NCBI GenBank assembly: GCA_030847615.1 | Contig: JAUMIR010000001.1 | Span: forward strand, 370,318,687-370,382,686 | Length of the DNA: 64,000 nucleotides | Direction: 5' to 3' | Source of the DNA: Gambelia wislizenii | Taxonomy: Eukaryota > Chordata > Lepidosauria > Squamata > Crotaphytidae | Part shown: piece after piece, positions 16,001 to 60,048 of the stretch | Layout of the letters: every line of letters begins with the position of its first letter | Numbering within the stretch: the stretch's first letter is position 1 | Program-made: the position numbers and the translations under genes | Notes under the pieces: model-generated | The model's database searches: none | Told to the model about the DNA's origin: nothing | What the model saw: only the letters and a program-made list of their open reading frames with translations

Positions 16001-16906
16001 TGAGGCCTGCCTAATAAATAACGAGACTGACAGAATAACCCATCTTATTTTTATGTATTATAATTCTAATGCTTTCCCCCTTCAATATACTCCCTGTTCA
16101 CAGTCATACACCAATGCAGTCTTGTTTTCCATTGGTTGAAGGTGTGGAGCAGATCAGTTTCTGTCAGCTGTTTCAACACATCTGCCATTTTCTTCTTTAC
16201 TGCATCAATTGACTCAAAACGTGTTCCATTAAACACTGATTTCATTTTAAGGAAAAGAAAAAAGTTGCATGGTGCCAAATCTGGGAAATATACAGGATGG
16301 TCAAGTATATTAATGCATTTATCAGCCAAAAACTGCTTCACAGAAAGTGCTGTGTGAGCAGGTGCATTGTCTTGATGAAGAATGAAACCATTTCCCCACA
16401 GTCTGGCTTTTTTTCCCCCCCTGACTCTCTCAGCTTTTTCAAAACTTCCTTATAATAATGCTGGTTCACTGTTCTGCCTTTTGGAACCCATTCTGCCAAA
16501 ATTATGCCCTTGATGTCAAAAAACCCCAATGAGCATGGCTTTGAATATGGACTTGCTTTGACGTACTTTTTTCATTCTTGGAGGTGATGGTGTTTTCCAG
16601 TGCATTGACTGTCCTTTTCTCTCAGGATCATACTGGAAGATCCAGGTTTCATCACAAGTGATGATTTTATGAAAAAGGTTTTGTTGCTGCAGAATGTCAC
16701 GTGGCTTGACTTTTAAACTTAGCATTTTTCCGGCACACAACAGACAACACTTCTGCTTTATACAATGACTGACAATTAACTGAACAGCTGAGAGTTGATG
16801 CTTGTCATGCAGGTTCAGACATGTTCAAGGTCACCAGTCAAGCATTCACATTCAGTTCTTCCTGATTTGTAGAAACACAGTCTTGTTATTTAATAGACAT
16901 ACCTCG
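16001..16906 (-). mobile_element. Mariner-type DNA transposon, internally deleted
   Basis: The terminal inverted repeats of about 30 bp are tgaggcctgcctaataaata at the left and, in reverse complement, cgaggtatgtctattaaata at the right. TA dinucleotides flank both (15999-16000 and 16907-16908). The length of about 0.9 kb is shorter than the usual ~1.3 kb; the missing part corresponds to the N-terminal DNA-binding region of the transposase. Confidence 0.8.
16066..16740 (-). pseudogene. Mariner transposase fragment, catalytically dead
   Basis: Minus-strand frames, broken by at least two shifts, encode the catalytic half of a mariner transposase. The first catalytic Asp lies in TCDETWIFQYDPE, the second in HQDNAPAHTA. 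The third should be Asp after 34 residues in the YSPDLAPCD motif, but this copy reads PDLAPCN, an Asp-to-Asn change. The N-terminal helix-turn-helix region is absent. The protein family cuts and pastes DNA at TA sites; this copy cannot. Confidence 0.8.
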
Positions 16907-20485: not shown

Positions 20486-23400
20486 TCAGGAAGGACTCAT
20501 CCCGTGTTTTCTGCAAGTGCGCTGATGACTAAAAAGGCCAATCCGAGATAAACAAGTCCGGTTGCAAAAAGCACAGCAGAAGGTTTCCTCGGGTGATGTT
20601 ACCAGGTTGTGATTCTTTCTGCGTTGCCGTTTCTCTTCAAGACTTGTTCGGTGTGAGTTCTCAAATAAGGCTGCAGCATTGTTGATAGTGTGTCTCCATG
20701 CCTCCCGATGTGAGGCCAGAGCGGACCATTGTTGGTGATCAATTTGGCCGTGCCTGAGATGTTGTTTCAGGGAGTCCTTGTATCACTTTTTTGGAGTGTC
20801 CCTCTTATGCTGACCCATGGCGAGTTCACCGTAGAGTACTATTATGGGGAGGCGATGGTCCTCCATACTAGACACATGCCCTGCCCAGCGCAGCTGTGTT
20901 CTCAATACCATGGCCTCAATGCTGGTGATCCCTGCTTGCTCAAGGACAGCAACATTCGTCACATCGTCAGTCCAGTGTATATTTAGGATTGTGCGTAAAC
21001 AGCGCTGGTGGAAGCGTTCGAGGAGTCATAAATGGTGGCGATAGGTGACCCATGTTTCAGATAGATAAAGGAGAATAGACAGTACAATGGCTCTATACAT
21101 ACTGATTTTTGTGTTTCGCCTCAGGTGTTTATTACTCCAGACTCTTTTGTAAAGTCTTCCAAATGCGCTATGTGCCTTTGCTAATCTGTGATCGATCTCT
21201 TTATCAATCTTGGCATCTGAGGAGATGATGCTTCCCAGGTAGGTGAACTGCTGAACGGACTTAAGCACAGAATTGCCGACAGCAATGTGCGGATGGTGGT
21301 GTTCGTCCTGTGGTGCAGGCTGGAAAAGAACTTCTGTTTTCTTCAGGTTGACTTCCAGCCCAAAGAGCTCTGCAGCTGTTGCGAAGGAGGATGTTAGGCA
21401 CTGCAGAGCTGCTTCTGTGTGGGCAACAAGGGCAGCATCGTCAGCAAAGAGCGGCTCACAGACTAGATAGTTTAGAGTCTTAGTGCGAGCCCTCAGACAG
21501 CTTAAGTTAATCAAAGTACCATCAGTACGGTAATGTATATAGATGCCGTCGTCCTCTTTGAGCTCGCTGTAGCCCTTTGGAGCATCATGCTGAAGAAGAT
21601 TGTAAATAAAGTTGGCGCAAGAACATAACCTTGCTTCACTCCATTAGTTATTAGAAAGGGCTCTGAAAGAGCATCGCCATATCTGATTTGACCACGCTGG
21701 CCCTCGTGTAGCAAGATAATCATTTTAAGGAATTTGGGGGGACATCCTAGTTTTTCCAGGATCTGCCACAGACCTTTCCTACTCATGGTGTCGAAGGCTT
21801 TGGTGAGGTCAACAAATGTTACATAGAGACCCTTGTTCTGCTCTCTACATTTCTCTTGCAGTTGTCTAAGGGCAAATACTATATCAGTAGTACTCCTATT
21901 GGCTCTGAAGCCACATTGGCTTTCAGGAAGAAGTTCTTCGGCAATGGCAGTTCCCCTTTTTCCCAGCAATTCACAAGGAGCTCATGGAATTTAACATGGA
22001 GTTTCCAAACTTCAGGTGGGATTCCATCAATCCCAGCTGCCTTGCCGTTTTTCAACTGCTGTATGGCCTTAAGGGTCTTTTCCAAAGTGGGAGCTATGTC
22101 TAATTCATTTTTTACCGGTTTTTGTATCATATGTTGGATAGCTGAGTCCTGGACGACTCGGTTGGCACTAAAGAGACTTTGAAAGTGTTCAGCCCATCGA
22201 TTCAGGATGGAGGCTTTATCAGTAATTAATGTTTGACCATCTCTACTCTATAAGGATCTTTGGACCTGATAAGTAGGTCCAAACACTGCCTTGAGAGCTA
22301 GAATCACCCAGATCTGCACAGCGTTGTGTCTTTTCTGCTATATTGATCCACCACTTGTTCTGCATGTCTTGTAGTTTTTGTTGAAGTTTACTACATATGG
22401 GACGGAAAGCTGCTTTTCTTACAAGGCAAGTTGGCTGGGCTAGGTATGCCTGGTGAGCAGTTCTCTTCTTTGCCAACAGCTCCTGGATCTCTTGGTTGTT
22501 TTCATCAAACCAGTCTTGGTTTTTCTTGTGAGAGAACCCGAGGGATTCTTCCGCAGACTGGAGGATACTGTTTTGGATATGTTGCCAAAGCACTGTGGGA
22601 GAAGGATCTGGAGGATGGTCTTCAAGTTTTGTTTGCAGGTTTGCCTGGAAGTTGTCTCTCGTGGTAGCTTGTTGAAGATTGTTGACTTGGAGTCTCTTCT
22701 TTAAGATGGCACCCCTCTTAGGTTTGAACTTAAGATGAAGGTTTAGTTTACGAGGCGATGATCTGTCTGGCATTCTGCACTGGGCATCACTCGAGTATGA
22801 TGGACATCGCAAATGTTTCTCTGGCGGACTAGAACATAGTCAATGAGGTGCCAATGTTTCGATCAGGGAGGCATCCAGGTTGTCTTCAAACTGTCTTTCT
22901 GCTGAAAGATAGTGTTTGTAATAGTCAGCTGTTGTTCTGCACAGAACTCTAGCAGGAGCCGTCCGTTATCATTGCAATTTCCAACACCATGCTTGCCTAA
23001 GACATCTTTCCAGGCTTCGGAGTTCTCTCCTACTCTGGCATTGAAGTCACCAAGGATAATAATGTTATCTTCTACAGGGACTTTTTGTATGAGGTGGCGT
23101 AGGTCTGTGTAGAATTTGTCTTTCTCTACAGGGTCGGCTTGCATAGTTGGGGCATCTATACTAAAGAGAACAACATGTAGGAGGCATAAGGAAATAATGC
23201 GATCAGAGTGTCCTGTTGGCAAGGTTTCGAGTTTGGAGGCAATGGAGTTTTTAATCATGAAGCCTACCCCTGAAAGATGTTTTTCGGTTTCGGGTTTGCC
23301 AGACCAGTAAAGTGTGTAGCCGGTGCTGTGTTCTTTAAGGCTGCCTTCCTCATGGAGACGAACTTCACTAAGAGCAGCAATGTCAATATTAAGCCGTGAT

Positions 23401-23805
23401 AGTTCATGGGCTATTAGAGCAGAACGACGCTCAGGCCATCTACTGTTTTCAGAGTCTCGCATGGTTCTGATGTTCCAGCATGCAAGCGTCAGTTTATTTA
23501 TACCTTTGGAGGCCGGTGTGCGCCTTTGTTTCTTTGCCTTGGTTGACCACATCAGAAGATTCCCGTTGGCCGTGGCTAGCCAAACAGGTAGTTGGGGATG
23601 AGCTTTCGTTAGGCCACCTTTTCTAGGCCCCTCTCCATATGGAGCAAGCAGTGCTCTCCTTAAAAAAGGCTGCTTGGTCATTCAGGATGCTGCTGAACAA
23701 GACTGTCATCTCCCGGGTCAGTCTTGAGCGACCAAAGTCCTGAACTGCCTGCATGCAGGGTTGGGTCTGCGGCTTCCAGTGCATCTTTACACCTGCCGGT
23801 TTCAT
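20486..23805 (-). pseudogene. LINE polyprotein (APE endonuclease, RT, zinc finger), broken
   Basis: Read on the minus strand. An AP-type endonuclease lies at about 23540-22860, with LACWNIRTMRD, SEVRLHEEG, and ILGDFNARVG. Then comes a linker, and a reverse transcriptase at about 22130-21030: FVDLTKAFD palm motif, NGVKQGYVLAPTLF, FADD active site near 21440, and TYLGS. Then a C-terminal domain and a cysteine/histidine finger, FCCAFCNRTC...SHQRTC (about 20500-20585), before TGA at 20486-20488. Several frameshifts or stops break it, at about 23640, 22850, 22240, 21950 and 21510. The family performs target-primed reverse transcription. Alternatives considered: RTE/BovB, which lacks this finger. 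Function is lost in this copy. Confidence 0.8.
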
Positions 23806-25162: not shown

Positions 25163-25972
25163 CAGTCGTCCCTTCACATTCGCGAATAACTACACCCCTC
25201 CCCCTCCCTCCCCAGGCCTTCGCGGGGCCTTCCTAGGCCCCGCGGAGGCCTCACCGGCCCTCCCTCCCACCCTCCCCGGGCCTTCGCGTGGCCTTCCTAG
25301 GCCCCGCGGAGGCCTCACCGGCCCTCCCTCCCACCCTCCCCGGGCCTTCGCGGGGCCTTCCTAGGCCCCACGGAGGCCTCACCGGCCCTCCCTCCCTCCC
25401 TCCCCGGGCCTTCGCGGGGCCTTCCTAGGCCCCGCGGAGGCCTCACCGGCCCTCCCTCCCTCCCTCCCCGGGCCTTCGCGGGGCCTTCCTAGGCCCCGCG
25501 GAGGCCTCACCGGCCCTCCCTCCCACCCTCCCCAGGCCTTCGCGGTGCCTTCCTAGGCCCCGTGGAGGCCTCACCGGCCCTCCCTCCCACCCTCCCCAGG
25601 CCTTCGCGGGGCCTTCCTAGGCCCCGTGGAGGCCTCACCGGCCCTCCCTCCCACCCTCCCCAGGCCTTCGCGGGGCCTTCCTAGGCCCCGCGGAGGCCTC
25701 ACCGGCCCTCCCTCCCACCCTCCTCAGGCCTTCGCGGGGCCTTCCTAGGCCCCGCGGAGGCCTCACCGGCCCTCCCTCCCTCCCCAGGCCTTCGCGGGGC
25801 CTCCGGAGGGCCTCCGGGCGTCCCGTGAAGGCCTCCCCACCCCTCCCCAGGTCTTTCACGGGGCCTCTGGAGGCCCCGTGTCGCGGTTTTGGGGGGGCCC
25901 GGGGGGGCCCTCCCAAAACCGCGAATAACCGAAACCGTGAATGTCAAGTTCGCGAATGTGGAGGGACAACTG
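25163..25972. mobile_element. Tigger-like MITE carrying an internal minisatellite
   Basis: Terminal inverted repeats are cagtcgtcccttcacattcg on the left and, in reverse complement, cagttgtccctccacattcg on the right. TA flanks both (25161-25162, 25973-25974). Almost the whole interior is a GC-rich tandem repeat. Copies of the same end family without the repeat lie at 40128-40343 and 53117-53346. Confidence 0.8.
25201..25860. repeat. 64-bp GC-rich minisatellite
   Basis: The landmark ccttcgcg recurs at 25217, 25281, 25345, 25409, 25473, 25537, 25601, 25665 and 25729, exactly 64 bp apart, then at 25789 (60 bp). Decayed units follow. Units differ by a few bases and each contains the palindrome-like block ccttcctaggccccgcgg. 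Confidence 0.95.
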
Positions 25973-30841: not shown

Positions 30842-32351
30842 CGTATATTCTAGCGTATAAGACAACGTTTGAGCCCTCAAAAATATCCTCCAAAATTGAG
30901 GGTCGTCTTATACGCCGGATACACTTTGCTTCACCCCCGCCGTCCAATCTCCTGCCTCTTCGCTCCCTTCGCAAACGGAGCAAAGAGGCAGGAAATCGGG
31001 CAGGGGGGGTGAGGCAAAGTGTTTACTGGTTCATTCTCCCCCCTCCTCTGCCTTCTCCCCCTTTGCAGAGCAACCGAAGACAGAGGAGGGGGTGGATGTC
31101 GCGGTTTGTCGCGGCTGCCGCTCGATCGCCTGTGTGTTCAGTGGCCGAGGCAAACTGGGGATTTTCACCCCTTTCCTCCACCTTCCTTGAAGCGAATCTA
31201 GTGGTTTGCCGCAGCCGCCCCCACTTCCCCCGTCTTCATCCCCTTCAGAAGAGAGCCAAGATGGAGGGAGGGGGTGGAAAGGGGCGAAAATGCCCAGTTT
31301 GCCTCAGCAGCCCCCTTCCCTCCATCTTGGCTCTCTTCCAAGGGGGACCAAGGCAGGGGAAGCGGGGGCAGTTTGCCATGGCAAACCACTAGTTTCACCC
31401 CTTTCCTCCAACTTCAAGGAAGGTGGAGGAAAGGGGCGAAAATGCCCAGTTTGTCTCAGCATCCCTCTTCCCTCCATCTTTGCTCTCTTCCGAAGGGGTC
31501 CAAGGCAGGGGAAGCGGGGGTGGTTTGCCGCAGCAAACCACTAGTTTCACCCCTTTCCTCCAACTTCAAGGAAGGTGGAGGAAAGGGGTGAAAATGCCAG
31601 TTTGCCTCAGCAGTCCCCTTCCCTCCGTCTTGACTCTCTTCCGAAGGGGCCAAGGCGGAGGAACCGGGGGCGGCCGTGGCAAACCACTAGTTTCGCCCCT
31701 TTCCTCCACCTTCCTTGAAGGTGGAGGAAAGGGGCAAAAATGCCCAGTTTGCCTCAGCAGCCCCCTTCCCTCCGTCTTGGCTCTCTTCCGAACCGCCGCC
31801 GCTTTCCCCGCTTTGGTCCCCTTCGGAAGAGAGCAAGATGGAGGGAAGGGGGCTGCTGAGGCAAACTGGGCGTTTTCGCCCCTTTCTTCCACCTTCAAGT
31901 CAAGGGTGACTAGAAGGTGGAAAAGAGGGGCGAATGCCACGGTTTGCCACGGACGCCACCCATCCCCTCCGTCTTCATTCCCTTTGCAAAGGGAAGAAAG
32001 ATGGAGGGAATGGGCAGTGACTGAGGCAAACTGGGTTCATTTGGCCCCCTCCTCTACCTTCACCCCCTTTGGGGAGCAACCAAAGGTGGAAAAGAGGGGC
32101 GAATGTTGCGGCTGGCTGGCTGAGAGAGCCCTGCCAGCTGATCCTGTTCGCTTTCCCAACTCACGAGGAGATCTTCGTGAGTTGGGAAACAAAGAGGATC
32201 AACTGGCAAGGCTCCCCCAGCCAGTCAGTCAGCCAGCCAAATTGGGGGCTGGTCTTATATGGCGAATATATGCCAAACCCTAGATTTTTAGTTGAAAATG
32301 GGGGGGGTCGTCTTATATGCCCAGTCATCTTATACGCCGGAATATACGGTA
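30842..32351. mobile_element. TIR element with internal ~150-bp tandem repeats
   Basis: The left end ccgtatattctagcgtataa and the right end (reverse complement ccgtatattccggcgtataa) are inverted repeats of about 30 bp or more. TA flanks both. Subterminal blocks (ggtcgtcttatacgccgg left; ggtcgtcttatatgccc right) are also related. The interior is low-complexity repeats with no transposase. Confidence 0.75.
31230..31910. repeat. Tandem repeat, ~150-bp unit, with an inverted unit
   Basis: The landmark tgcccagtttg (or its variant) recurs at 31291, 31443, 31595 and 31741, spacings of 152, 152 and 146 bp. The landmark aaaccactag recurs at 31383, 31535 and 31681. An inverted version (gaggcaaactgggcgttttc) sits at about 31858-31877. 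Long open frames here (31423-32283 +) are by-products of repeat periodicity. Confidence 0.85.
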
Positions 32352-44728: not shown

Positions 44729-45222
44729 CCTAAGATCCTAGCCTAGCATTTAGGCCCCAGCAGTAGTCAGACTGATGCCTTTTGAAGCTCATCAGCAGGT
44801 CAGGATGGTACTGGCTGATCTCATGCTGTTGTTTCTTTCCATCATCTAGTAATCAGGGATACAGTGACTCTGAATCCAGACGATTCATTGATTTATCACT
44901 GATTCATCATTCAGCATACATCTGTTACTATTCTCAGCATCATAGTTTACCAGGTGTTTTTGACTGGAATTTTGGACCATCAACTATTTGGATTCTATGC
45001 AAGAATCTAGAAATCAGTGAGGTATCACACGATTATGTGGTATGTTCCAATTAGTGTCATTTTTTGTACTTGTGATCTGGTCTATAGCAATTTTGTTGAA
45101 ATGCCTTGTCAGTTTGCTTGGGATTGCACCCTTGCTACTTATCACTGAAACCACAGCTGTTTTCTTTAACCAAAAGTGCTAAGTCTCCATTTGTAAGTCT
45201 TTATATTACACAATCTTTTCCC

Positions 45223-45600
45223 TTTCTTTCACCACTTCAATGGCCATGGCTCTAGCCTACAGAATCCTGGGTTTTGTAGTTTTGTGAGGCACTAGCACTC
45301 TATGGCAAAGAAGGCTAAAGGCTTGTAAAACTACAAATGCAGGATTCTGTAGGATGGAGCTACAGTACTTAAAGTGGTGGTAAACTGCATTATTTCTACA
45401 GTGTAGGTGCACTTATAGGCTGAATGCCTACAGGCTGAATGGAATTCTGAGATTTGTGCTTTTACGAGATGTTTAGCCTTCTCTGTCAGAGAGCTCTGAT
45501 GCCACAACAAACTACAAATCCCAAGATTCCATAGCATTGAGTCAGAGCAGTTAAAGCAGGATCAACTGGATTATTTCTGCAGTGCAGATGCAGCCTGAGT
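45223..45600. mobile_element. Two adjacent foldback MITE copies
   Basis: Two units of the tgcagttaaagtgg family in tandem (about 45223-45418 and 45419-45600). Each has opposed blocks such as gaatcctgggttttgtagtt / ctacaaatgcaggattctg and ttctgagatttgtgctttta / ctacaaatcccaagattcc. Confidence 0.6.
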
Positions 45601-46073
45601 TAGCTATTATTTCTGTTAACAATTTAAACATTTTTAACAAACAGGTGATTGGATGGTAGTTTGCTGGAGTAGCCCCCCCCCTTCTTTCATAATCAATACT
45701 GTTCTGTTGTGATCCAACTGAAGATAGTAGGAAGTGTTGTATAAAGGAATAGAGTAAGGGGTGTTAAGGAAAATGCAACATGGGACATACAGTGAAAGAA
45801 ATAAAATATGTATGTGAAAGTCACAATGACTAAGCAAGAGCAATTATGAAGCTACACAGGTGAAACTGCTAATGTAATCTAGAAGGCCTGAGAGCCAAGG
45901 ACAGAGGTACTGAATGCAGATTGGAAACACCTGAGAATCATTAAGTGTACAAGGGTGAAATGTTGAAATACATGGGTTGGTCTTAGGCATGGATGGAACT
46001 ACGTGGACCAATCAGAATGGAAGTACACACCCACTGGGTGGAAACTAACTAGTGGGTGGTGATAAACAATGGC

Positions 46074-46080
46074 TATAAAA
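46074..46080 (+). promoter_or_regulatory. TATA box of the copia 5' LTR
   Basis: TATAAAA, 62 bp downstream of ccaat in accaatcag. This is the likely core promoter of the genomic transcript; the start site should lie about 25-30 bp downstream. Confidence 0.7.
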
Positions 46081-46176
46081 TTGCAATGTTTGCCAATGTA
46101 TTTTTGTGGTGGAGTAGTTGTGGAGTAGTGTGTAGAGATTGTGATTTGTTGACCATATAGTATATTTATATAGAGG

Positions 46177-46182
46177 AATAAA
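46177..46182 (+). promoter_or_regulatory. Polyadenylation signal in the LTR
   Basis: AATAAA in gaggaataaagtagg. In the 3' LTR the same signal would direct 3' end formation of the element's RNA. Confidence 0.65.
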
Positions 46183-46420
46183 GTAGGTTTTATATAAAAC
46201 TACTGAGTTGCCTGAGTGAATCCTGGAAACGTTTTGGAGACACCTAGAGAAGAGTGAGAAGGCTTGGAGAGTTTGTCAGGATCTTCAGCCTATTCTCTGA
46301 AACTCTGCTGCTTTGGAGGAAAGCATTAACCACTGATCTAAGCTGGTTGGCTCTGCTGCATAACAAGGTGGTGAGTTTGAGCCAGAGGTGAAGAGCTACA
46401 ACTCCCATCATCCCTGACAA

Positions 46421-46435
46421 GGGTTATGGGCCCAG
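46421..46435 (+). other. Primer binding site: half-tRNA initiator Met
   Basis: gggttatgggcccag follows the 5' LTR by one base. It is the reverse complement of the anticodon stem-loop of eukaryotic initiator tRNA-Met (ctgggcccataaccc), not of its 3' end. Priming by an internally cleaved initiator tRNA is known for Drosophila copia and yeast Ty5. Confidence 0.85.
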
Positions 46436-46637
46436 TTACTAGAGCACCCAGCATCCACAGAAGCTGAAAGTTCCAGAAAGTGGAAGAAAGCTTTGTGGAC
46501 GACAGATCACAGCAAGCTGTTTGTGCTGCACTGATAAGCCTTGTGAGTAAATCATTTTGTGTTTTGCTTAAGCCCAGACGGGTTGGCTGTGCATACTCAG
46601 AAGGACTGTGTCAAATTGAGTCACTGCACAAATCAAG

Positions 46638-49600
46638 ATGGAATTTCTAAAGTTTAGTAAATTGAATAGAAACAACTACTCTACCTGGAAGATTTATGCC
46701 CAATCTCTACTAGTAAAGGAAGGTCTGTGGTCAACAGTTGAAACAGGGCTGGCAGCTGATGCTAATGAAGCCACTAAAGAGAGAGATAGTAAAGCAAAAG
46801 CCTGTCTTTATCTCATGCTTGAAGAAGACTTAATTAATGACGTCAGAGATAAAACGTCTGCCAAGGATGTGTGGGATACCTTGCAGAGATTACACACTCC
46901 TTCAACTGCTTTTGCAAAAATGCTATGGTCTAAAAGAATATACAGGCAAAAGATGGCTAAAGGGCAGTGTGTGATAGAACATTTAAAAATAATGCAAGAC
47001 TTGTTTGTGCAAGCTGAACTGAGGGGAGTGCAAATTAGCAAAGAGCAGCAATGCTACATTTTAATAGAATCGCTAGACTCTTCGTGGGACAACATAACGA
47101 ACAGCCTGCAAAACCTGCAGGAAGCTGAACTTAATAGAGACTTAGTTGTGGCCAGAATACTGGAAGAGAACCAGAGAAGAATGTCTGAGCAGGGTGACTC
47201 AGCAAGTTTAAAGACTGTGCCAAAACAACAAACAACTCCTGACTGGCGAACACAGGAGGAAGCAGCCTCTACAAGGGAGCAACGGAGGTGCTTTTATTGT
47301 AAGAAGATTGGTCATCTGCAGAGACATTGTAAACATTTTGCAGCTGAGAGACACAAGCAAGCAGAGAGCAGATGGCAGCCGCGGCAGTATCAAAAACAGT
47401 CCAGACCTCCATTTTTGAGGGACAGTGGTAATAAAAAGGGGGTTGCAACCATGATTAAGGAAAAACAAAATGCAAATTCTAAATGGCTAGTTGATTCAGG
47501 AGCCACATCATTGATGTGTAATGACATAAATTTAATAAGTAATAGAAAATCAGCTAATGTAAATACTGTAGTTTTGGCTGACGGGAAAGAGCTAAGTACT
47601 GTAAATCAAATGGGTACTGTGTACATTCCAGGGCTAAAAGAGAATTTTAATGATGTCTTACATGTAAAGGAGTTAGAAAATAATTTGTTATCAGTAAGCA
47701 GATTAACAGAAAGAGACTACACAGTCATCTTTGAAAAGAACATGTGTAAGATAAAATTGAATGGGGAATTGCGTGGCATAGGTTTGAAAAAGGACAAACT
47801 TTATTATTTGGAGGACAATATTGATAGCTACAGGGTTGAAGAAGCTAATAACATAGAAAATATTCCAATCCACAAAGACTGCATACACGAGCTTCACAGA
47901 AAATTTGGCCATGCGAGCTTCAAATGTTTAAAGAATTTAATCAGTATGTGTCCAGATTTAAAAGTTGCTGAATGCAAAAACCACTTAGATTGTATGGTAT
48001 GTCATCAGGTAAAGGTCAGAGCTTTTCCAGTAGCTAAGAAAACAAAAAGAATTGCTCAAAGACCATTTCAGTATGTACATGCAGATGTTGCCCAAGCTAA
48101 TTGCTTGTCCTTAGGGGGAAGCAAGTATTTCCTAGTAATTGTTGATAGGTATACAAGATTTGCATTTGTGAGAATAATGAAAAACAAATCTGACGCTGGG
48201 CAAAGTTTAAAAGCATGGGTAAGAATGGTGGAAAGACAATTTGATAGCAGAGTAGGCACCATCATAACTGATAGAGGAGGAGAATTTTTAAATAATCAAT
48301 TGTTTAACTGGTTTCAAAAGGTGGGAATAAGGCATGAAACTACAAACCCTGCTTGTCCTAGTGAGGATGGGTTAGCAGAGAAGAAAATACAAGATATAAA
48401 AAGAATTACTGCTTGTATGGTGGCAGATGCAGGGGTGAAAGATAGTTTTTGGGCAGAAGCAACTTTGACTGCAATACATATCAGTAACAGATTGTATCAT
48501 TCAGAAATTGAAGACATTCCCTACAGGGTATTGTATGGGAGAATGCCAAATTACAAGTACTTAAGGGTTTTTGGACAATTTGCTCATGTTTATACACCTG
48601 CTTGTTTCAGGAGGAAAGGAGAACCCAAAAGCAAAAGGCTTAGGTTTTTGGGGTATTCTGGAAATAGCTACAAGTTTCATTTGGGAGGAAAACAAGTGCA
48701 GTATTCTAGGTCTGCAAATTTTGAGAGACATGCTGGTTGGGACAAACTGCATGCCAATAAAGAAGTGTTTTTGAGATTAGGGAGTTCAAATGAGCCAGAA
48801 GCACAAACTGAACCAACCTCAGGAAACGGAGGGGTTTCAGTTAAGCAGGAAGCATCACCAAGCAGCAGTGGTAGTTCTTCTGATGATGAGATAGCATCTA
48901 GGCCTACTACTACTCGAATGACTGAAGACAAGAGATTTAGTCATAGAACTACAACGCCTAGTAGAGAAAGTGAGGATGAAGGAGACAGATCAGCAGATTT
49001 TATTCCCAGGCGTAGTCATAGAGTTAGAAAGCCTCCAGATAGGTTTGTTGTGACAAAGGCAAGAGCTTGTTTAGCAGTAGAAGAGCCTGAAAGTTTTGAA
49101 GAATTGGAAAGTTATTCTAGTGAAGAACAGGAAAGATGGTTTGATGCAATGGATAATGAGTTTGGTTGCCTGGTAAATAAAGATGTTTTTGAAATTGTTG
49201 ACAGACCCAAAGACAAGAAAGTAATTGGTTGTAAATGGGTATACAAAAGGAAAGAAATGCCAGATGGAAGTATCAAATATAAAGCTAGGTTAGTGGCTAA
49301 GGGTTTTGCACAACAGCAGTATGAGAACTATGATAAGACATATTCTCCAACTGCAAAGCCAGAAAGTCTGAGAATGGTTCTAGCTGTAGCAGTAAAAAGG
49401 AATTTAGTTGTAGAACATTTTGATTTTGAGACAGCTTACTTGAATGCGGTTCTGGATGAAGAAATATTTATGGAACAGCCACAAGGTTTCGAAGAAAATG
49501 GTAGTCAGAGAGTATATAAATTAAAGAAAGCGTTGTATGGTTTAAAACAAAGTGCCAGAGCGTGGAATCTGTGCATCAATGATGAGCTAGTAAAGCTAGG

Positions 49601-50603
49601 TTACAAGAGGAGCATTGCAGATGCTTGTGTTTATACAAAAGGAGACATAGTATTAGTGATTTATGTAGATGATTTGTGCGTAGCAGCAAAGTCAAAACAG
49701 GAAATTGAGTCAGTAAAAAGAGAATTGTCTAAGAAGTTTGTTTTGAAGGACTTAGGTGTATTGAAGTCTTATTTAGGTATTTGTGTTGAATGGACAGAAG
49801 AAGGACATTGTTTATTAAGTCAGAGAAATAAAATTGAAAGACTGATTGAAAAGTGTGGATTACAGAATGCAAAAATAGTAAGAGCTCCAATGACAACTGG
49901 TTTTGTGTCTGAAGAAACAACTAGAGCGTTTGAGGACAAGACTTTATTCAGAAGTATAATAGGATCTTTACAATTCATATCTTGCCACACCAGACCAGAC
50001 ATTTCTTATGCTGTAAATGTATTGTCTAGAAGGGTTAATGATCCAAAAATTGAAGACTGGACAGCGGTAAAACATTTATTGAGATATTTGAAAGGAACCT
50101 TAGATAGGAAATTGATTATAAGAAACAATAGTTCAGATCTAGATTGTTATGTAGACAGTTCATTTGCATCAGAATTAGGAGACAAGAAGTCAGTTACAGG
50201 AATGATAATTAAATATAGTGAAAGTCCAATAGTTTGGAGAAGTAGAAAACAAACTAATGTAGCGTTAAGCACAACGGAAGCAGAATTCGCTGCTTTGAAT
50301 GAGATAGTAAATGAGGTACAGTGGATTAAGCAATTGCTAAATGATTTAAATGAAAGTTACAAGATACCAGTGGAAATTCTGGAAGATTCACAGTCATGCA
50401 TAGCAATGGCTGAAACTGAAAGTTTGAAGAACAGAACAAAATATGTTGGTGTAAGATATCAAAATGTACGAGACATGGTTCAGAAGGGTGAAATAGAATT
50501 GAGATATATAGAAACACAACACAACATAGCAGATTTGTTCACAAAAGCATTGACAGTAGAAAAGCATGAAAGGCTGACACAAATGGTTGGAATGACATTG
50601 TAA
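46638..50603 (+). CDS. Copia Gag-Pol polyprotein, intact
   Basis: One 1321-residue frame, full length for the superfamily. The N-terminal Gag domain ends in a zinc knuckle C218-x2-C221-x4-H226-x4-C231. The aspartic protease active site is D286-S-G-A. The integrase zinc domain is H420-x4-H425-x26-C452-x2-C455, and its catalytic core D483, D545, E581 has the last two spaced by 35 residues. An acidic, serine-rich linker spans about 735-830. The reverse transcriptase lies at about 853-1090, with YVDD at 1009-1012. RNase H lies at about 1150-1290, with STTEAE (E1214, E1216). All key residues are present. The product should form virus-like particles in the cytoplasm, copy the RNA and integrate the DNA. 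The ATG chosen is the first in frame and gives a typical copia Gag start (FLKFSKLNRNNYSTW). Gag and Pol are fused without a frameshift, so a lower Pol level would need processing or splicing. Confidence 0.96.
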   Translation: MEFLKFSKLNRNNYSTWKIYAQSLLVKEGLWSTVETGLAADANEATKERDSKAKACLYLMLEEDLINDVRDKTSAKDVWDTLQRLHTPSTAFAKMLWSKRIYRQKMAKGQCVIEHLKIMQDLFVQAELRGVQISKEQQCYILIESLDSSWDNITNSLQNLQEAELNRDLVVARILEENQRRMSEQGDSASLKTVPKQQTTPDWRTQEEAASTREQRRCFYCKKIGHLQRHCKHFAAERHKQAESRWQPRQYQKQSRPPFLRDSGNKKGVATMIKEKQNANSKWLVDSGATSLMCNDINLISNRKSANVNTVVLADGKELSTVNQMGTVYIPGLKENFNDVLHVKELENNLLSVSRLTERDYTVIFEKNMCKIKLNGELRGIGLKKDKLYYLEDNIDSYRVEEANNIENIPIHKDCIHELHRKFGHASFKCLKNLISMCPDLKVAECKNHLDCMVCHQVKVRAFPVAKKTKRIAQRPFQYVHADVAQANCLSLGGSKYFLVIVDRYTRFAFVRIMKNKSDAGQSLKAWVRMVERQFDSRVGTIITDRGGEFLNNQLFNWFQKVGIRHETTNPACPSEDGLAEKKIQDIKRITACMVADAGVKDSFWAEATLTAIHISNRLYHSEIEDIPYRVLYGRMPNYKYLRVFGQFAHVYTPACFRRKGEPKSKRLRFLGYSGNSYKFHLGGKQVQYSRSANFERHAGWDKLHANKEVFLRLGSSNEPEAQTEPTSGNGGVSVKQEASPSSSGSSSDDEIASRPTTTRMTEDKRFSHRTTTPSRESEDEGDRSADFIPRRSHRVRKPPDRFVVTKARACLAVEEPESFEELESYSSEEQERWFDAMDNEFGCLVNKDVFEIVDRPKDKKVIGCKWVYKRKEMPDGSIKYKARLVAKGFAQQQYENYDKTYSPTAKPESLRMVLAVAVKRNLVVEHFDFETAYLNAVLDEEIFMEQPQGFEENGSQRVYKLKKALYGLKQSARAWNLCINDELVKLGYKRSIADACVYTKGDIVLVIYVDDLCVAAKSKQEIESVKRELSKKFVLKDLGVLKSYLGICVEWTEEGHCLLSQRNKIERLIEKCGLQNAKIVRAPMTTGFVSEETTRAFEDKTLFRSIIGSLQFISCHTRPDISYAVNVLSRRVNDPKIEDWTAVKHLLRYLKGTLDRKLIIRNNSSDLDCYVDSSFASELGDKKSVTGMIIKYSESPIVWRSRKQTNVALSTTEAEFAALNEIVNEVQWIKQLLNDLNESYKIPVEILEDSQSCIAMAETESLKNRTKYVGVRYQNVRDMVQKGEIELRYIETQHNIADLFTKALTVEKHERLTQMVGMTL

Positions 50604-50625
50604 GACACATACAATATTTTATTTC

Positions 50626-50633
50626 GGAGGGGA
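50626..50633 (+). other. Polypurine tract
   Basis: ggagggga, one base before the 3' LTR (50635). Primes plus-strand DNA synthesis in LTR elements. Confidence 0.8.
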
Positions 50634-50634
50634 T

Positions 50635-51292
50635 TGTTAAGGAAAATGCAACATGGGACATACAGTGAAAGAAATAAAATATGTATGTGAAAGTCACAAT
50701 GACTAAGCAAGAGCAATTATGAAGCTACACAGGTGAAACTGCTAATGTAATCTAGAAGGCCTGAGAGCCAAGGACAGAGGTACTGAATGCAGATTGGAAA
50801 CACCTGAGAATCATTAAGTGTACAAGGGTGAAATGTTGAAATACATGGGTTGGTCTTAGGCATGGATGGAACTACGTGGACCAATCAGAATGGAAGTACA
50901 CACCCACTGGGTGGAAACTAACTAGTGGGTGGTGATAAACAATGGCTATAAAATTGCAATGTTTGCCAATGTATTTTTGTGGTGGAGTAGTTGTGGAGTA
51001 GTGTGTAGAGATTGTGATTTGTTGACCATATAGTATATTTATATAGAGGAATAAAGTAGGTTTTATATAAAACTACTGAGTTGCCTGAGTGAATCCTGGA
51101 AACGTTTTGGAGACACCTAGAGAAGAGTGAGAAGGCTTGGAGAGTTTGTCAGGATCTTCAGCCTATTCTCTGAAACTCTGCTGCTTTGGAGGAAAGCATT
51201 AACCACTGATCTAAGCTGGTTGGCTCTGCTGCATAACAAGGTGGTGAGTTTGAGCCAGAGGTGAAGAGCTACAACTCCCATCATCCCTGACA
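50635..51292 (+). repeat. 3' LTR of the copia element
   Basis: 658 bp, TG...CA, with no difference from the 5' LTR on reading. Confidence 0.97.
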
Positions 51293-51858
51293 AGGGGGTT
51301 ATCGGGTGATACGATACCTCTCAGAGTAGCAGATATTTGTGCAGCAGAAGGTTCTCAGAAATGTGTTCTGAGGGTCTCACAGCAAACCACTAAATCAGTG
51401 TTTCTCAACCAGGTTTCCGCGCAACCCTAGGGGTCCGTGAGACATTGCTACGGGTTCAGTGAAAAATGAAACCTGTTAGGCTTTACGACCCAGCTCTGTC
51501 CCAGCCTCCTCCACCAGCGCCTCTTAGCTCCTTTCCTAGGCTTTTCCCCTGCCCTGCCCTCCCCATCACAGGAGGGGCAGAAGATGGCAGCAAGAGGGAA
51601 GAAAGGAAGTACAGTCTGAAAAGTGGGGGTGAGGGAGAAAAGACATATTGGGGAAAGAGGGGGTTTTGCATGAACTTGCACAGCCTGAAACCACAGAATC
51701 GGGATTTAATCATGCACATGTATAAAGCACTGAAACCACAGAATCGGGATTTAATCGTGCACGTGTATAAAGCGAGTTAAATCTGTGGGGTTCTGTGTGG
51801 AGCCTTCCAGCCTTTTAGGACATGGTTATATGGAGCCTCTAGTACTAGAAGCAGTGTA

Positions 51859-51896
<38 letters not shown>

Positions 51897-51898
51897 TG
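51859..51898. repeat. (TC)n(TG)n microsatellite
   Basis: About ten TC units followed by about ten TG units. Confidence 0.9.
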
Positions 51899-52376
51899 GA
51901 GGGGTGGAGGGGTGGTGAAGAGTAGGGTGCAATTAATTCTGTCACCTGAGTTTTCCTGCAAGTTTTGGCTGGTCACTGTTGAATGGAATGCTTGGATCCT
52001 TTTGTGGACTCTATTGGTCTAATAATGCATCAAGAACATTCTTATCAGAGCCCATCCTGACACGCAAGGGAGATAAAGCAGGGGGTCCTTTAGAAAGAGG
52101 AAGCATTTGCTACCAAGTTTAACTGGGATTGTGGCTGTCAGAGGAGACAGTGCTTTCTTAAGCAAGGTATGTTCAGAGGTAGTTTGCTTCTGAAATGCAG
52201 CCTATAGTGCCTGGAAACCATTCATTTCTATAGGGTGTGCTATTATCCAAGGTTTTGTGTATCCACAGTAAGTCTGGGAGCGTATCCCCCATGGATACAA
52301 GGGGGCAACATCTATTTCCAGCCAGAAATTGAGTAGTCTCAGCAGACACAAAGTGTTTATGTTGAGGCCTCTATAG

Positions 52377-59003: not shown

Positions 59004-60048
59004 ATAGAATCATAGAATTGCAGAGGTGGAAGAGACCATGAGGGCCATCCAGTCCAACCCCCTGCCATGCAGGAAATCACGATCAAAGCATCCTCGACAG
59101 ATAGCCATCCAGCCTCTGTTTAAAGACCTCCAAGGAAGGAGACCCCACCACGCTCTGAGGGAGTGCGTTCCACTGCCGAAAAGCTATTACTGTCAAAAAG
59201 TTCCTCCTAATGTTGAGGTGGAATCTCTGTTCCTGCAGCTTGCATCCATTGCTCCATGTTCCAATCTCTGGAGCAGCAGAAAACAAGCTTGCTACATCCT
59301 CAATGTGACACCCCTTCAAAGACTTAAACAGGGCTATCATATCGCCTCTTAACCGTCTTTTTTCCAGGCTAAACATACCTAGCTCCCTAACTCTCCTCAT
59401 AAGGCATGGTTTCCAGACCTTTCACCATTTTAGTCACCCTTCTCTGACGCTCCAATTTGTCAATATCCTTTTTGAATTGTGGTGCCCAGAACTGGATACA
59501 GTATTCTAGGTGAGGTCTGACAAAGGCAGAATAGAGCGGCACTATTACTTCCCTTGATCTGGACACTATACTTCTATTGATGCAGCCCAAAATCGCATTG
59601 GCCTTTTTAGCTGCCGCATCACACTGTTGACTCATGTTCAACTTGTGGTCTACTAGGACTCCTAGATCCCTTTCGCACGTAGTCTCATTCAGCCAGGTCT
59701 CCCCCATCCTATATCTATGCATTTCATTTTTTCACCCTAAGTGTAGTACCTTACATTTCTCCGTATTGAATTTCATTTTGTTAGCTTTGGCCCAGCTCTC
59801 CAGTCTCTCCAGGTCATTCTGAATTTTGATCCTGTCCTCCAGGGTATTAGCTACTCCTCCTAATTTGGTGTCATCTGCAAATTTGATAAGTATGCCCCTA
59901 ATTCCCTCATCCAAGTCATTGATAAAGATGTTGAATAGCACTGGGCCCAGGACAGAACCCTGTGGCACCCCACTGGTCACATCTTTCCAAGATGAAGAGG
60001 AGCCATTGCTGAGCACTCTTTGGGTTCAGTCGGATTTCTTTATATCAG
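59004..60048 (-). mobile_element. CR1 LINE, 3' kilobase
   Basis: The minus strand encodes the CR1 RT region [20 protein letters not shown] with the active site FADD. Then [39 protein letters not shown], and SLEVFKQRLDGYL follow. It ends at the diagnostic reversed terminus atcatagaatcatagaattg (59004). Frameshifts break it near 59390-59400 and 59725. 5'-truncated; not mobile. Confidence 0.92.

What the first reader, a model, noticed from the sequence alone, without database searches (positions are those of the whole stretch)
45757..51297. Structurally complete, apparently very young Ty1/copia element in a reptile genome
The LTRs (658 bp each) showed no difference on full reading. The 1321-codon Gag-Pol is unbroken with all catalytic residues in place, and the agggg duplication is perfect. 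Ty1/copia elements are uncommon in vertebrates compared with gypsy, ERV and LINE elements, so an intact copy suggests recent or ongoing activity or a recent horizontal arrival.
Basis: partly seen in the sequence, partly recalled or inferred. Interest (0 to 1): 0.85.

Follow-up and report, generated by a model that had tools for sequence, protein, structure and literature searches.

The report
Young copia retrotransposon, thousand-copy family
A complete and very recently inserted jumping gene of the Ty1/copia kind sits here, and the same genome carries about a thousand close relatives of it, many with an unbroken coding frame, so it is a young member of a large resident family and not a lone newcomer.

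Summary
A primer site matches the anticodon arm of initiator tRNA-Met.

The insertion is young. But the 2.47-Gb host assembly holds 1071 exact copies of its 5' LTR/PBS junction, 1091 of its PPT/3' LTR junction and 2521 of an LTR 34-mer. Of 99 5' junctions examined, 86 belong to near-full-length elements. At least 168 copies have a full-length open frame. In 29 of 37 other copies, taken from the tops of hit lists, the LTRs differ by no substitution.

Copies differ by about 1.9% in LTRs and 4-5% at synonymous RT sites, with few protein changes: several functional lineages inserted recently. At least three further copia lineages share the genome, the nearest at 66-68% RT identity. Contamination is ruled out; a recent isolated arrival is disfavoured.

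Recently active squamate copia is already published (corn snake, anole, sea-snake group). This is a new, large member of a known kind.

The parts
45757..45761 (.). 5' target-site duplication AGGGG
   Evidence: identical 5 bp at both ends
45762..46419 (+). 5' LTR, 658 bp, TG...CA, with TATAAA at LTR positions 313 and 432 and AATAAA at 39 and 416
   Evidence: 0 of 658 differences from the 3' LTR; signals found by script
46421..46435 (+). primer binding site GGGTTATGGGCCCAG, complementary to nt 26-40 (anticodon arm) of vertebrate initiator tRNA-Met
46638..50603 (+). gag-pol open reading frame, 1321 codons: Gag with CCHC knuckle, protease, integrase (D,D35E), reverse transcriptase (YVDD), RNase H motifs
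   Evidence: Gag matches the solved Copia VLP protein 8vvw (E 4.8e-11)
50626..50633 (+). polypurine tract GGAGGGGA just before the 3' LTR
   Evidence: sequence directly; the PPT/LTR junction occurs 1091 times exactly in the genome
50635..51292 (+). 3' LTR, 658 bp
   Evidence: identical to the 5' LTR
51293..51297 (.). 3' target-site duplication AGGGG

Best explanation
This is a recently inserted, autonomous-looking Ty1/copia LTR retrotransposon and one copy of a large young family resident in this genome. The likely cycle: the LTR promoter drives a genomic RNA. That RNA gives one Gag-Pol polyprotein whose Gag forms intracellular particles. Reverse transcription starts from an initiator tRNA-Met paired through its anticodon arm. 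Integrase inserts the DNA copy with a 5-bp staggered cut. Several slightly different lineages of the family have been copying themselves in parallel, under selection to keep the protein working, up to very recent time. Shown: anatomy, identical LTRs, TSDs, about a thousand copies, many open frames, low pN/pS in a small sample. Inferred from known copia biology: transcription, particle formation, priming and present mobility.
For: Anatomy. Copy number: 1071 exact 5' LTR/PBS junctions and 1091 exact PPT/3' LTR junctions, reversed controls 0; LTR 34-mer 2521, control 0. Integrity: of 99 5' junctions examined on contig C1, 86 have a 3' junction 4150-4270 bp away, against 4208 in the window. Coding: 84 of 90 scored RT hits (the window copy is one of them) have an open frame of at least 1324 codons with no stop; joined the union is 168 copies. 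Youth: 29 of 37 other LTR pairs have 0 substitutions, 15 substitutions in 24,548 sites in all. TSD perfect in 29 of those 37. Selection: pS 0.038-0.049, pN 0.0018-0.0071, ratio 0.04-0.16 among 4 copies, window included. Solo-like LTRs are 33 of 100 listed LTR hits.
Against: LTR pairs and RT hits came from the tops of ranked lists, so youth and intactness are over-represented in those samples; only the pattern counts are free of that, and they count exact matches only. 20 random 10-kb stretches held no copy; at about 0.2% of the genome that is expected and adds nothing. Gene conversion could also make LTRs identical. No RNA, polymorphism or second individual was available. Some copies are damaged: 5 of 90 RT hits have open frames of only 880-1119 codons and 1 has a stop, and the RT of one other copy (L008) has an indel. 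8 of 37 pairs showed no perfect TSD.
Confidence: 0.93

Rival explanations
1. Recent horizontal arrival: the family entered this species' lineage from another organism and then burst.
For: Very low LTR-LTR divergence in the sampled copies. No protein closer than 42-43% RT identity among those listed from the protein collection, so no donor or vertical relative was seen outside this genome.
Against: Copies differ by 1.87% in LTRs on average and by 4-5% at synonymous sites, too diverse for a single very recent founder. At least three other copia lineages are in the same genome, one at 66-68% RT identity in a supported clade with the query (98/96). Absence of near relatives elsewhere may only mean that reptile transposon proteins are not held.
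Confidence: 0.1
2. Old insertion kept looking young: the LTRs were homogenised by gene conversion or the copy was spread by segmental duplication.
For: LTR conversion is known in principle (recalled). Two RT hits lie 4891 bp apart at C1:270468422 and C1:270473313, a spacing that suggests recombination through a shared LTR.
Against: 29 of 37 checked copies have a perfect TSD, of 28 different sequences, as separate insertions would. Conversion would not keep a 1321-codon frame open, and 0 or 1 substitution is found in 33 of 37 pairs.
Confidence: 0.04
3. Assembly contaminant or chimera.
For: None found.
Against: Family copies with full-length frames lie on 12 different contigs, including the one of 502 Mb that holds the window; the rest of the window holds other transposon pieces; base composition and CpG depletion of the element resemble the window (GC 0.385 against 0.408, CpG o/e 0.19 against 0.22).
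Confidence: 0.01

Closest known systems
Corn snake Copia LTR retrotransposon (5832 bp; inserted in OCA2 in amelanistic and in CLCN2 in Stripe animals; PMC4657000 and PMC11948899, passages read)
   Same: Ty1/copia element of similar size in a squamate; near-identical copies; recent activity; insertions in introns with phenotype. 85 copies at over 95% identity over more than 5000 bp reported in the corn snake assembly.
   Different: The family here looks larger: 1071 exact 5' junctions, though counted by a different method. No phenotype or expression is known here.
Copia elements of the green anole (PMC7561263, passages and part of a table read; the Copia row of polymorphic insertions begins with 1962)
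   Same: Copia insertions segregating in a lizard.
   Different: No sequence compared. Anole numbers are polymorphic insertions across a 28-animal sample, not full-length copies.
Mtanga-like Ty1/copia element of tuatara (PMC7116210, passage read)
   Same: Copia especially abundant in a lepidosaur genome.
   Different: Clade membership of the present element could not be tested against named references.
Drosophila copia and yeast Ty5 (anticodon-loop priming; discussed in PMC10886601, passages read; Gag structure 8vvw)
   Same: Gag matches the Copia VLP protein (E 4.8e-11); primer site complementary to the anticodon arm of tRNA-iMet; single Gag-Pol frame (that of Drosophila copia is recalled).
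   Different: Low sequence similarity; host probably a vertebrate; RT does not group with the named plant or insect rows in the trees.

Membership tests
Ty1/copia superfamily | integrase upstream of reverse transcriptase in pol | tested here: met
   rve 474-572 before RVT_2 849-1086
Ty1/copia superfamily | copia-type RT (RVT_2) and copia-type gag | tested here: met
   RVT_2 E 9.5e-70, Retrotran_gag_2 E 1.1e-27, both above the curated cut-offs
Ty1/copia superfamily | LTRs TG...CA and 5-bp TSD | tested here: met
   window copy; 29 of 37 other copies show a perfect 5-bp TSD; of the 8 misses 3 had ends not cleanly delimited by the alignment
Ty1/copia superfamily | primer site for initiator tRNA-Met (here the anticodon-arm type used by Drosophila copia and Ty5) | tested here: met
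   15-nt complementarity at 46421-46435 (tRNA recalled); first 16 bases after the 5' LTR are the same in 35 of 37 other copies
Ty1/copia superfamily | no envelope gene | tested here: met
   only one ORF of 150 aa or more in 45000-52000
GalEa-like copia clade | primer site complementary to the 3' end of tRNA-Met, as given for GalEa1 and CoRex1-2 (PMC3587641, passages read) | tested here: not met
   the site here pairs with the anticodon arm
a named animal copia clade (Mtanga, Hydra, GalEa, Copia, 1731) | RT-RNase H placed in that clade | not testable with these tools
   no named reference of these clades among the rows used; one insect row (P0109, Mythimna separata) does not group with the query
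active family | transcripts and insertion polymorphism | not testable with these tools
   no RNA reads and one assembly only
horizontally transferred family | similarity between hosts above that of host genes, patchy distribution | not testable with these tools
   states that the genome has no relatives held

The most novel reading that the evidence does not exclude
A presently mobile Ty1/copia family of about a thousand near-full-length copies, with well over a hundred unbroken Gag-Pol frames and several lineages moving at once. It would be among the most successful recent copia expansions known in any amniote and a likely source of new mutations in this lizard or snake.
Probability: 0.55. 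Interest if true: 0.5.

Novelty: new member of a known kind. Interest (0 to 1): 0.35.

Why it matters
Copia is usually called the minor LTR superfamily of animals. A genome with about a thousand exactly junction-conserved copies, mostly full length in the part examined, with strong protein conservation between lineages, shows that copia can be a major recent mutator in a vertebrate. With the published corn snake cases, where two colour morphs are linked to copia insertions, it gives a second and probably larger system in which insertion polymorphism, silencing and effects on genes could be measured. The single copy in the window is ordinary within its family.

Tried and rejected
Contaminant: rejected by copies with full-length frames on 12 contigs. 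Lone recent arrival: disfavoured by family size, diversity and sister lineages. Viral contigs: no match for the patterns drawn from the RT piece. Protein collection: best listed RT relatives 42% identity, mostly unnamed environmental contigs and plants (120 of 4646 were listed); the first 470 residues found only 10 proteins at E 1e-10 or better, 22-28% identity. Host identification from the window's LINE endonuclease: the best named hits are birds and a ray at 69-81%, not diagnostic. tRNA genes: none in the window. Rfam: no match at gathering scores. 20 random 10-kb stretches of the six largest fetched contigs: no family copy. One search returned 0 because I had mistyped the LTR pattern (two bases lost); it is not evidence. 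The same mistyped pattern was in the unanswered. The empty-site sequence was printed but never searched. A fuzzy LTR count with 3 mismatches did not complete, so LTR numbers are for exact matches only.
Full report
1. The observation. The element lies at 45757-51297 exactly as described. The two LTRs are identical over 658 bp (45762-46419 and 50635-51292) and the 5-bp duplication agggg is perfect. One ORF of 1321 codons (46638-50603) runs unbroken. Pfam finds copia gag, the pol beta-barrel domain, integrase core, SH3 and RVT_2 in that order. Script-found motifs are the CCHC knuckle at 218, DSGA at 286, D483/D545/E581 with 35 residues between the last two, YVDD at 1009 and RNase H-type motifs at 1169 and 1209. 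RNase H has no Pfam row of its own. The Gag half matches the solved Copia VLP protein (8vvw, E 4.8e-11).

2. Signals. One base after the 5' LTR lies GGGTTATGGGCCCAG (46421-46435), complementary to nucleotides 26-40, the anticodon arm, of vertebrate initiator tRNA-Met (the tRNA was recalled). Priming at the anticodon loop is on record for Drosophila copia and yeast Ty5 (PMC10886601, passages read). Among plant elements, half-tRNA primers are confined to some Ty1/copia lineages (PMC6317226, passages read). [quoted passage not shown] The purine tract GGAGGGGA (50626-50633) precedes the 3' LTR. The LTR holds TATAAA at position 313 and AATAAA at 416, among others, fitting a promoter and a polyadenylation signal; that is inference.

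3. Age of this copy. With 0 of 658 differences the 95% upper bound on divergence is 0.45%. At recalled host rates of 0.7-2 per billion years that is at most about 1.1-3.2 million years, and zero is the best estimate. Gene conversion is a caveat.

4. The family in the host genome. The assembly G000 has 2.47 Gb in 68 contigs and the window is C1:370318687-370382686. The exact 23-base 5' LTR/PBS junction occurs 1071 times and the exact 22-base PPT/3' LTR junction 1091 times, with 0 for the reversed control patterns. An exact LTR 34-mer occurs 2521 times, control 0. These calls list only their first places. I used 99 listed 5' junctions, all on C1, leaving out the last listed one because it lies beyond the end of the list. 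Of the 99, 91 have a 3' junction on the same strand within 12 kb and 86 lie 4150-4270 bp from it; the window value is 4208. Of the 100 LTR hits listed, 64 are in pairs (32 elements), 3 adjoin an internal junction and 33 look solo. About a thousand near-full-length copies at 5.5 kb make roughly 0.2% of the genome. That is an extrapolation from part of C1, and exact patterns miss diverged copies.

5. Coding integrity. An RT-RNase H piece found 8293 first-look candidates, of which the 90 best were scored, all at 99-100% identity. Of these, 84 (window included) have an open frame of 1324-1342 codons and no stop, 5 have frames of 880-1119 codons, and 1 has a TGA. The RVT_2 profile scored 150 of 5934 candidates; I counted 91 rows with 1326-1327-codon frames, 7 of them also, so the union is 168 copies. 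I take those rows as this family on frame length; one of them (L115) was fetched and is 99% identical. These lists are tops of rankings, so they say nothing about the share of intact copies.

6. Other insertions. I fetched both LTRs of 17 elements, namely every pair besides the window's among the 40 best LTR hits (the other 4 of the 40 were single). From the RT list I computed places for 30 elements near its top and fetched 20 of them. In set 1, 14 of 17 pairs have no substitution and 14 of 17 a perfect TSD; in set 2, 15 of 20 and 15 of 20. In all, 15 substitutions in 24,548 sites, 0.06%. The 29 perfect TSDs have 28 different sequences. The 8 pairs without a perfect TSD include 3 whose ends were not cleanly delimited and 5 that may be recombinants.

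7. Diversity between copies. One LTR from each of 38 elements (window included) gives a mean difference of 1.87% (0-3.5%), and only 2 of 703 element pairs have LTRs without a substitution; the window's own nearest is 1.2% away. Across 474 RT-RNase H codons, the window copy and three others differ pairwise by 11-14 synonymous and 2-8 nonsynonymous changes, with pN/pS of 0.04-0.16. A fifth copy (L008) was dropped because of an indel. Recent insertions therefore come from several lineages that kept a working protein. This is the pattern of sustained replication, not of one founder spreading once.

8. Other copia lineages. Ten RT domains were fetched (10 of 150 rows, chosen for different scores and lengths). 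Two belong to the query family (97-99%), three to a sister lineage (66-68%), three to a third (48-49%) and two to a fourth (41%). The query family plus sister are a supported clade (98/96) and with the third lineage another (100/100) against unnamed environmental, plant and insect rows; the fourth falls elsewhere in the tree. In an earlier tree without these rows the query sat on a long branch beside one unnamed long-branch row (P0121, 94/98). The sister lineages favour long residence of copia in the host line. No other reptile could be searched, so horizontal transfer at some earlier time stays open.

9. Host. Six contigs of 163-502 Mb and others of 30-45 Mb fit a squamate with macro- and microchromosomes (recalled), and the window holds CR1-like, mariner-like and other transposon pieces (labels partly recalled). 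'Reptile' is likely but not proved.

10. Literature. Saenko et al. 2015 (PMC4657000) and the 2025 CLCN2 paper (PMC11948899) report a 5832-bp Copia element in two corn snake genes, the two inserts differing by one base, with 85 copies in the assembly. PMC7561263 has 1962 as the first number of its Copia row of polymorphic insertions in anoles. PMC8872380 reports Copia expanding in hydrophiine snakes and near inactive in the cobra. PMC7116210 calls a Mtanga-like element especially abundant in tuatara. PMC4131045 reports only 6-8 Copia copies of each of two types in a frog genome. For all these I read passages only.

11. Verdict. Observation confirmed. Young insertion and recent family activity supported; rarity and fresh horizontal arrival not supported. 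A new member of a known kind, with a family size that is notable for a vertebrate.

Noticed in passing
G000 C1:270468422 and C1:270473313: Two full-length RT frames 4891 bp apart on one strand, the spacing expected if two copies share a middle LTR, as after recombination between LTRs.
   Followed up: no
L107-L109, L110/L113/L114, L111/L112: At least three further copia RT lineages in the same genome at 48-49%, 66-68% and 41% identity to this family's RT; several of the 150 rows have shortened frames or a stop, so some lineages look older.
   Followed up: partly
window 20486-23681 (-): Remains of a LINE with a 272-aa endonuclease frame and broken RT frames; named relatives of the endonuclease are annotated 'craniofacial development protein 2-like' in birds, a ray and invertebrates.
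   Followed up: partly
window 59387-60025 (-): Reverse transcriptase fragment (RVT_1 E 9.8e-16 in the 59732-60022 part) that looks CR1-like (label recalled).
   Followed up: no
window 16066-16824 (-): Broken mariner-like transposase fragments (label recalled; DDE_3 match weak, below cut-off).
   Followed up: no
window 25202-25802 and 31265-31792: Tandem arrays of 64 bp (9.5 copies, 96% match) and 152 bp (3.5 copies, 88%) in the GC-rich stretch of 24-32 kb.
   Followed up: no
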